Shown: piece by piece, positions 20,197 to 21,305 of the stretch
Position numbering within the stretch: position 1 is the stretch's first letter
Layout: every line of letters starts with the position of its first letter
Assembly: GCA_028687715.1 (NCBI GenBank)
Contig: JAQTZP010000001.1
Coordinates: 1-39,875, forward strand
Length of the DNA stretch: 39,875 nucleotides
From: Minisyncoccota bacterium
Lineage (GTDB): Bacteria; Patescibacteriota; Minisyncoccia; Minisyncoccales; GWA2-38-27
Reading direction: 5' to 3'
Notes under the pieces: model-generated
Told to the model about the DNA's origin: nothing
The model's input: the letters and a program-made list of their open reading frames with translations, nothing else
Databases searched by the model: none
Made by a program: the position numbers and the translations under genes

Positions 20197-20271
20197 CGCA
20201 GCCGATGGGATTCGAACCCACGTTCTCTGCCGTGACAGGGCAGCGCTTTGAGCCAGCTAAGCTACGGCTGC
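20197..20271 (-). tRNA. tRNA-Asp (anticodon GTC)
   Basis: Folds into a full cloverleaf on the minus strand. The acceptor is GCAGCCG/CGGCTGC and the D-stem GCTT/AAGC. The anticodon stem CTGCC/GGCAG closes the loop CTGTCAC, and the T-arm is GTGGG-TTCGAAT-CCCAT. The discriminator is G73, an Asp identity element. The 3' CCA is not encoded, so a CCA-adding enzyme is needed. It is the last of three same-strand tRNA genes. Confidence 0.95.
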
Positions 20272-20313: not shown

Positions 20314-20385
20314 TGCCGGAGGTGGGAGTTGAACCCACGACTTTCGCCTTATGAGTGCGACGTTCTGCCGCTGAACTACCCCGGC
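20314..20385 (-). tRNA. tRNA with CAT anticodon, elongator Met (or lysidine-modified Ile)
   Basis: Cloverleaf on the minus strand. The acceptor is GCCGGGG/CTCCGGC with one G-U pair, and the D-stem GTTC/GAAC has a 7-base loop. The anticodon stem TCGCA/GGCGA surrounds CTCATAA, and the T-arm is GTGGG-TTCAACT-CCCAC with A73. The 31-39 position is an A-G mismatch. It lacks initiator features, so it is elongator Met or tRNA-Ile2 (C34 to lysidine); these cannot be separated by sequence inspection alone. No encoded CCA. Confidence 0.85.
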
Positions 20386-20394
20386 AAAATTGTG

Positions 20395-20465
20395 TTGCGG
20401 GGCTGGGAATTGCACCCAGGTCTCGAGGTTATGGGCCTCGCAAGATACTCCTTCTCCACCCCGCA
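20395..20465 (-). tRNA. Initiator tRNA-fMet with atypical loops
   Basis: Cloverleaf of 71 bases on the minus strand. The acceptor is TGCGGGG/CCCCGCA (weak U1-A72 pair instead of the usual C1-A72 mismatch). The D-stem GAGA/TCTT contains the initiator-type A11-U24 pair, the anticodon stem is CGAGG/CCTCG, and the T-stem is CTGGG/CCCAG. The anticodon loop is CCCATAA, giving C33 where U33 is near universal. The T-loop is TGCAATT, giving G55 where U55 (pseudouridine) is expected. The three G-C pairs of the initiator anticodon stem are reduced to A-U, G-C, G-C. The stems are intact, which argues against a pseudogene. No encoded CCA. Confidence 0.85.
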
Positions 20466-20555: not shown

Positions 20556-21305
20556 ATGTCTAAGTATTACAACTCCAAGAGGAAGAACAATATATTTGAA
20601 CCAGAATCTAAAGAACCTTTTAAATTGAGTCGTTCTCGGTTAGAGCTTTTCTTAGAATGCCCAAGATGCTTTTATCTTGACAGGAGGCTTGGCATAGAGC
20701 GGCCTGGAGGATTCCCTTTCTCTTTAAATAACGCTGTTGACCTTCTTTTAAAGAAGGAATTTGATGCTCATAGGGTAAAAGGGTTAAGGCATCCTCTTAT
20801 GGAAAAATACAATATAGAGGCTGTTCCTTTTGAGCATGAAGATTTAAAGAAATGGCAGAATACCAAAGTTGGAATTCAGTTTCTTTATAAACCAGCTAAT
20901 TTCATTGTTTTCGGAGGAATAGACGATATCTGGATAAATTCAAATAAAGAGCTTCATATCGTTGATTACAAGGCAACTTCCAAGACCAGCGAGGTTACAA
21001 TTGATGAGGATTGGCAGATAAGCTACAAAAGACAGATGGAGATTTATCAATGGCTTTTTAAGATGAATAATTTTAAAGTTTCTGATATTGGTTATTTTGT
21101 TTACTGCAACGGCAGGACCGATAGAGAGGCTTTTGACAAGAAGATTGAATTTGATATAAAGGTTATTCCTTATAAAGGAAACAGCAGCTGGATAGAGAAA
21201 GCTTTAAAAGATGCGTACCTCTGTCTTAAAAACAATGTTCTGCCTGAGCCTTCAGATGATTGTGATTTCTGCAGCTACAGGGAGGAAGCTGCCAAGATGG
21301 AATAA
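20556..21305 (+). CDS. PD-(D/E)XK nuclease-like protein with paired CxxC motifs
   Basis: A 249-residue protein of the RecB/Cas4-like nuclease superfamily. The start LSRSRLELFLECPRCFYLDRR is the family entry motif and carries C35 and C38. Acidic residues in GGIDDIW (D123, D124) and HIVDYKATS (D137, K139) form the metal-binding D...DYK core. QISYKRQMEIYQWLF is the conserved QxxxY-type helix, and the C terminus holds CDFCSYREEA (C236, C239). Four cysteines, two at each end, recall the Fe-S or zinc clasp of Cas4 and AddB. No cas genes are near, so a DNA repair or recombination role is more likely than CRISPR adaptation. It stands alone, divergent from the tRNA cluster. A weak TATAGAAT box lies just upstream. 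No Shine-Dalgarno site. Confidence 0.75.
   Translation: MSKYYNSKRKNNIFEPESKEPFKLSRSRLELFLECPRCFYLDRRLGIERPGGFPFSLNNAVDLLLKKEFDAHRVKGLRHPLMEKYNIEAVPFEHEDLKKWQNTKVGIQFLYKPANFIVFGGIDDIWINSNKELHIVDYKATSKTSEVTIDEDWQISYKRQMEIYQWLFKMNNFKVSDIGYFVYCNGRTDREAFDKKIEFDIKVIPYKGNSSWIEKALKDAYLCLKNNVLPEPSDDCDFCSYREEAAKME

What the first reader, a model, noticed from the sequence alone, without database searches (positions are those of the whole stretch)
20395..20465. Initiator tRNA with C33 and G55
All stems pair, and A11-U24 plus a weak 1-72 pair mark it as initiator. The anticodon loop is CCCATAA (C33 instead of U33) and the T-loop is TGCAATT (G55 instead of U55). The D-loop AGGAGTA lacks a clear G18-G19 arrangement. 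U33 makes the anticodon U-turn, and U55 pairs with G18 in the elbow. Eukaryotic initiators can have C33, but this is unusual in bacteria. It may go with the near absence of Shine-Dalgarno sites.
Basis: partly seen in the sequence, partly recalled or inferred. Interest (0 to 1): 0.7.

Follow-up and report, generated by a model that had tools for sequence, protein, structure and literature searches.

The report
Initiator tRNA with a swapped elbow
The only tRNA that starts proteins in this tiny Patescibacterium has replaced the textbook G18–U55 contact that locks the tRNA elbow by A18–G55, a paired swap that recurs across the phylum and in phage tRNAs and contradicts reviews that call this contact universal.

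Summary
A tRNA(CAU) on the minus strand at 20395–20465 has C33 and G55. It is the only initiator gene found in a 94%-complete 700-kb genome. It is not an error or a pseudogene: all 29 full-length sequences read from the family and order have G55.

The D-loop AGGAGUA reads A18-G19, so the elbow pair G18–U55 has become A18–G55 while G19–C56 is kept. In 136 initiators from the phylum, 54 have A18+G55, 82 have G18+U55 and none is mixed. Pattern scans of 380 genomes found 29 A18+G55 and no mixed form. The swap occurred at least four times, three of them inside single families. Phage initiators show the same rule, as do rare elongators, including this genome's tRNA-Leu(CAG).

Best explanation: the T-loop UGCAA is a UGNRA-type loop, in which an intruding A completes a GNRA-like fold (known from FMN and TPP riboswitches). 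The elbow is rebuilt without pseudouridine-55.

C33 is a separate, weaker trait (35 of 136), shared with mammalian initiators. The genome's 16S lacks an anti-Shine-Dalgarno, but any link to C33 or G55 was not tested.

The parts
20395..20465 (-). Initiator tRNA(CAU) gene, 71 nt, no encoded CCA; U1-A72 (20465/20396), A11-U24, discriminator A73 (20395)
   Evidence: read base by base
20446..20452 (-). 7-nt D-loop A14 G15 G A18 G19 U20 A21; A18 at 20449, G19 at 20448
20408..20414 (-). T-loop UGCAAUU: U54 (20414), G55 (20413), C56 (20412), A57, A58; fits the UGNRA T-loop consensus
   Evidence: consensus from PMC2258182
20429..20435 (-). Anticodon loop CCCAUAA: C33 at 20434, anticodon CAU at 20433-20431
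   Evidence: C33 in 35 of 136 phylum initiators
20314..20385 (-). Neighbouring tRNA(CAU), elongator Met (or Ile2), canonical T-loop TTCAACT and U33: internal control
20197..20271 (-). tRNA-Asp(GUC), canonical elbow, same tRNA cluster

Best explanation
This is the cell's sole initiator tRNA, and its D-loop/T-loop elbow has been rebuilt. In ordinary tRNA, G18 slides between bases 57 and 58 of the T-loop and pairs with (pseudo)U55. Here A18 takes that place and pairs with G55, so that G55-C56-A57 plus the intruding A18 form a composite GNRA-like fold. U54-A58 and G19-C56, the pair whose flat face is read by ribosome and RNase P, are kept. The two states are interchangeable solutions between which lineages have switched repeatedly, both bases changing together. 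Shown: the bases, their conservation, the near-strict 18-55 covariation, the repeated switching and the occurrence in phages. Inferred: the exact pair geometry, that the tRNA folds as a normal L, and that it needs no pseudouridine at 55. Why initiators above all adopted it is not shown; my best guess is that the initiator, which does not enter through the normal EF-Tu route, is freer to drift, and that lineages without the pseudouridine-55 enzyme TruB gain from a modification-free elbow.
For: 136 initiators read from the phylum: 54 A18+G55, 82 G18+U55, 0 mixed. Exact-pattern tallies in 380 evenly drawn genomes: A18+G55 29, A18+U55 0, G18+G55 0. Both states occur within families f94, f96 and f101 and in the window's own order (G022 is G18+U55). 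Within-family pairs differ, apart from T-stem changes, almost only at 18, 20, 55, 57, 59 and base 1. IMG/VR: A18+G55 85 stretches, G18+U55 at least 120, G18+G55 none, A18+U55 11 of which 4 are intact tRNAs. In 1511 distinct ARAGORN tRNAs, G55 goes with A18 in 228 of 229, the exception being a parsing artefact; this includes about 20 non-initiators that no pattern selected, among them this genome's tRNA-Leu(CAG). Structural precedent: in UGNRA loops an outside A joins the loop G to make a composite GNRA tetraloop (PMC2258182), and FMN-riboswitch UGAAA T-loops take an intercalated A (PMC3764141). TruB is absent from this genome, and in its class is found in 2 of 23 G55 and 5 of 7 U55 genomes.
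Against: No structure, tRNA sequencing or modification data were found for any such tRNA. Outside the class TruB does not follow the state (11 of 17 against 20 of 33), so TruB loss is neither needed nor sufficient. Four phage tRNAs have A18 with U55. The MFE of the bare sequence is a non-cloverleaf fold, 4.7 kcal/mol below the cloverleaf. Part of the viral and named-genome sample was selected by the pattern itself and is no independent evidence of covariation. Lower-scoring genomes of the phylum sample were not read.
Confidence: 0.82

Rival explanations
1. The elbow is simply decaying: the initiator needs no strong elbow, U55 drifted to G and the D-loop shortened without any compensating contact.
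For: Genomes are reduced; the D-loop is at a 7-nt length; the three-G-C anticodon stem is also relaxed (22 of 136 have all three).
Against: Under decay all four 18/55 combinations should occur; none of 136 initiators is mixed and mixed patterns are absent in 380 genomes. Seven-nt D-loops with G18+U55 are common, so short length does not force the change. C56, A58 and G19 stay fixed.
Confidence: 0.06
2. Loss of the pseudouridine-55 synthase TruB drives the change: without Psi55 the G18-U55 contact is weak, and A18-G55 restores a modification-free elbow in the tRNA that matters most.
For: TruB is absent in G000 and in 27 of 40 A18+G55 genomes against 15 of 40 G18+U55; within the class 2 of 23 against 5 of 7 have TruB; the only U55 genome read in the order (G022) has TruB.
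Against: Genomes are not independent; outside the class there is no association (11 of 17 against 20 of 33); G033 and family f94 have TruB with G55; family f101 lacks TruB in both states; nearly all elongators of TruB-less G000 keep U55.
Confidence: 0.2
3. The change marks initiators as an identity element, read by the P-site elbow contact (uL5), the E-site L1 stalk, IF2 or formyltransferase, and goes with altered initiation (no formylation, no Shine-Dalgarno).
For: Concentrated in initiators. Formyltransferase hits are missing in 15 of 40 G55 genomes against 1 of 40 U55. Own 16S lacks the anti-Shine-Dalgarno.
Against: This genome has formyltransferase. The losses sit in a few clades. uL1 is missing from the whole class in both states. 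The same pair occurs in elongators and phage tRNAs. The anti-SD was read in one genome only.
Confidence: 0.15
4. Assembly error, pseudogene or chimeric contig.
For: None found.
Against: Same bases in 29 of 29 sequences of the family and order and in independent named assemblies; all stems intact; only initiator found in the genome.
Confidence: 0.01

Closest known systems
Canonical bacterial initiator tRNA (tRNA-fMet)
   Same: CAU anticodon, A11-U24, weak or mismatched 1-72, GCGGG acceptor stem, G19, C56, U54, A58; fmt gene present in the genome
   Different: A18-G55 instead of G18-Psi55; C33; 7-nt D-loop; A29-U41 in place of the third G-C pair
UGNRA T-loops / lonepair triloops of TPP and FMN riboswitches
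   Same: U-G-N-R-A loop sequence with an A (or the TPP pyrimidine) entering between the fourth and fifth bases (PMC2258182, PMC3764141)
   Different: Not described for tRNA in the papers read; here the entering A comes from the D-loop next to G19, which also pairs with C56
Eukaryotic (mammalian) initiator tRNA
   Same: C33 instead of U33 (PMC9023262, PMC8080527); the mammalian loop CCCAUAA, identical to this one, is from memory; initiator-specific T-loop oddity
   Different: Its oddity is A54-A58, with G18, G19, Psi55 and C56 kept; no relationship implied
Phage-encoded initiator-like tRNAs
   Same: Same A18-G55 pair in 85 IMG/VR stretches, a prophage-like region of Euryhalocaulis caribicus and EBPR siphovirus 2
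   Different: Carried beside a canonical host initiator (shown for E. caribicus); some have Y11-R24; hosts mostly unknown

Membership tests
Bacterial initiator tRNA | CAU anticodon and cloverleaf with intact stems | tested here: met
Bacterial initiator tRNA | No strong Watson-Crick pair at 1-72 | tested here: inconclusive
   U1-A72 is a pair but a weak one; relatives mostly have C-A, A-A or C-U; 17 of 136 have U-A
Bacterial initiator tRNA | Purine 11-pyrimidine 24 (A11-U24) | tested here: met
   122 of 136 initiators A-U
Bacterial initiator tRNA | Three consecutive G-C pairs 29-41, 30-40, 31-39 (typical; not defining in this phylum) | tested here: not met
   A29-U41, G30-C40, G31-C39; only 22 of 136 phylum initiators have all three, including those with a canonical elbow, so it does not define initiators here
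Bacterial initiator tRNA | Formylation enzyme present in the genome | tested here: met
   TIGR00460 in G000, 2.7e-88
Canonical tRNA elbow | G18 pairing with U/Psi55 | tested here: not met
   A18 and G55
Canonical tRNA elbow | G19-C56 and U54-A58 | tested here: met
   Bases present here; C56 and A58 present in all G55 T-loops read, two of which have C54
UGNRA T-loop with intercalated A | U-G-N-R-A sequence | tested here: met
   UGCAA
UGNRA T-loop with intercalated A | An outside A covaries with the loop G | tested here: met
   A18 in 54 of 54 G55 initiators and in 228 of 229 G55 tRNAs
UGNRA T-loop with intercalated A | A inserted between loop bases 4 and 5, paired with G | not testable with these tools
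   needs a crystal, cryo-EM or probing structure

The most novel reading that the evidence does not exclude
The D-loop/T-loop contact of tRNA is a two-state switch (G18-U55 or A18-G55), not a universal constant. A large group of bacteria uses the second state mainly in its initiator, as a modification-free elbow co-adapted with a ribosome that starts without Shine-Dalgarno pairing, and phages carry it to make initiators that host modification or tRNA-cutting systems treat differently.
Probability: 0.15. Interest if true: 0.88.

Novelty: new variant of a known kind. Interest (0 to 1): 0.7.

Why it matters
Reviews call Psi55 universally conserved (PMC4810234, PMC7912444), and modification studies and structure models build on it. 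A paired replacement in an essential single-copy tRNA, made several times over, is a natural double-mutant experiment on the elbow. It predicts initiators that TruB (Psi55) and Gm18 methylases cannot modify at these positions, and it gives a clean test of what the 18-55 contact does in initiation. It also makes phage initiators with this elbow worth testing against host tRNA-targeting defences.

Tried and rejected
uL1 loss as cause: absent in the whole class in both states. Formyltransferase loss as cause: present in this genome; losses sit in a few clades. TruB loss as sole cause: no association outside the class. Linking C33 to G55: the two assort separately. Second canonical initiator: none found; of the two low-scoring extra hits one is a tmRNA and the other gives no tRNA. 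Literature with tRNA, A18, G55 and T-loop: no paper in the held library. Named phages: of eight blast hits read, one (EBPR siphovirus 2) has A18-G55 and seven are canonical.

Full report
WHAT IS THERE. ARAGORN places a tRNA-Met(CAU) at 20394-20465 on the minus strand, in a cluster with an elongator-type tRNA(CAU) and tRNA-Asp. Read by hand it is a full cloverleaf with U1-A72, A11-U24, loop CCCAUAA (C33), T-loop UGCAAUU (G55) and a seven-base D-loop AGGAGUA. A whole-genome tRNA search finds 32 tRNAs over the cut-off; only two have CAU, and the other has a normal T-loop. There is no second initiator in what is assembled.

IS IT REAL. A search of 60 relatives gives 29 full-length genes that were read, including the gene itself, and all have G55 with a short A18-G19 D-loop. 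C33 is present in every sequence read from the window's own family but alternates with U33 elsewhere in the order. Independent named assemblies, nearly all Patescibacteria, carry the same form: Nealson-, Portnoy-, Zambryski-, Kaiser-, Giovannoni- and Taylorbacteria and one WWE3. Sequencing error and pseudogene are excluded.

COVARIATION. From a phylum-wide search of 286 genomes plus the relatives I read 136 initiator entries with an intact parse, a few of them the same gene fetched twice: 54 A18+G55, 82 G18+U55, none mixed. The model that found them was trained mainly on G55 sequences, so the share of G55 is inflated, but that does not produce covariation. As an independent check, exact patterns were run on 380 evenly drawn genomes: A18+G55 29, A18+U55 0, G18+G55 0. 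Families f94, f96 and f101 contain both states, and one genome of the window's order (G022) is canonical while the others read are not; this needs at least four separate switches. Within-family pairs differ, apart from T-stem changes, almost only at 18, 20, 55, 57, 59 and base 1. A Fisher value (3e-39) ignores relatedness and should not be taken at face value; the repeated switches are the real argument.

BEYOND THIS PHYLUM. The same pattern in IMG/VR gives 85 stretches with A18+G55, at least 120 with G18+U55, none with G18+G55, and 11 with A18+U55, of which four are intact tRNAs. Most of the A18+G55 hits have a mismatched or weak 1-72 pair, as initiators do. Outside IMG/VR, one lies in a prophage-like stretch of Euryhalocaulis caribicus, whose chromosome also has a canonical initiator, and one in EBPR siphovirus 2. 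Among 1511 distinct tRNAs on all loci, G55 goes with A18 in 228 of 229, and the exception is a misparse. About twenty of these are elongators that no pattern selected, including this genome's own tRNA-Leu(CAG). So the rule is general and not strictly confined to initiators, though initiators carry it far more often.

HOW IT MOST LIKELY WORKS. In the standard elbow, residue 18 intercalates between T-loop bases 57 and 58 and touches base 55, while G19-C56 forms the outer pair (PMC4810234; PMC7912444). T-loops outside tRNA can read UGNRA; there an A from elsewhere joins the loop G to complete a composite GNRA tetraloop, and in the TPP riboswitch the ligand's pyrimidine takes that place (PMC2258182). 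FMN-riboswitch UGAAA loops take an intercalated A (PMC3764141). UGCAA with A18 fits this scheme: G55-C56-A57 plus A18. I infer that the elbow is intact, with a different internal pair and no substrate for pseudouridine-55 synthase. The geometry is inferred; the covariation is shown.

POSSIBLE CAUSES TESTED. TruB is absent from this genome. In its class TruB is found in 2 of 23 G55 and 5 of 7 U55 genomes, but outside the class there is no association. uL1 is missing from the entire class whatever the state. Formyltransferase is present here but missing from 15 of 40 G55 genomes against 1 of 40 U55; these losses are clustered by clade. All these are leads, not demonstrated causes.

C33 AND SHINE-DALGARNO. 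C33 is found in 23 of 54 G55 and 12 of 82 U55 initiators and is thus a separate trait; mammalian initiators also have C33 (PMC9023262; PMC8080527). Three of 33 candidate starts in the window have an SD-like site, no more than shuffles. The genome's 16S gene ends GTGGATCATTTCATT, without the CCTCC anti-Shine-Dalgarno.

JUDGEMENT. A real, conserved and recurrent variant of a contact described as universal, with a good structural precedent and an unknown selective reason. No paper in the held library combines tRNA, A18, G55 and T-loop; subscription literature and tRNA databases could not be searched. C33 alone would rate low; the A18-G55 swap raises the interest.

Noticed in passing
G000:C2 (L536 about 1668-1725): The 16S rRNA 3' end reads GGATCATTTCATT: the anti-Shine-Dalgarno CCTCC is absent. 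SD-like sites before genes in the window are at chance level.
   Followed up: partly
L536 1155-1630: The 16S gene seems to contain an insertion of several hundred bases near its 3' end (the Rfam match stops at 1155; the conserved GTCGTAACAAGG end is at 1668).
   Followed up: no
L058 1526-1712 and L538 143-370: In relatives G011 and G031 the initiator tRNA is interrupted by a group I intron (Rfam RF00028); in G011 it appears to sit after U36 in the anticodon loop.
   Followed up: partly
L032 816-899 (G000:C6): This genome's tRNA-Leu(CAG) also has G55 with an A18-G19 D-loop.
   Followed up: yes
L228 4124-4198 (Euryhalocaulis caribicus): A prophage-like region (integrase- and repressor-like ORFs, judged by eye) carries an extra Met tRNA with A1-A72 mismatch and A18-G55 beside the canonical host initiator.
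   Followed up: partly
L202 7286-7361 (Acidobacteria MAG): Extra Met tRNA with C1-U72 mismatch, elongator-like D-stem and A18-G55, beside a canonical initiator.
   Followed up: no
80 phylum genomes: Methionyl-tRNA formyltransferase hits are missing in 15 of 40 A18-G55 genomes but 1 of 40 G18-U55 genomes; clustered by clade.
   Followed up: partly
window 20556-21305 +: Gene beside the tRNA cluster encodes a PD-(D/E)XK nuclease domain with weak Cas4 similarity.
   Followed up: no
window 20395-20465: The Rfam scan at gathering threshold misses this tRNA in the window, although the whole-genome search scores it 50.9 bits against a cut-off of 29; probably the fast filters lose it.
   Followed up: no
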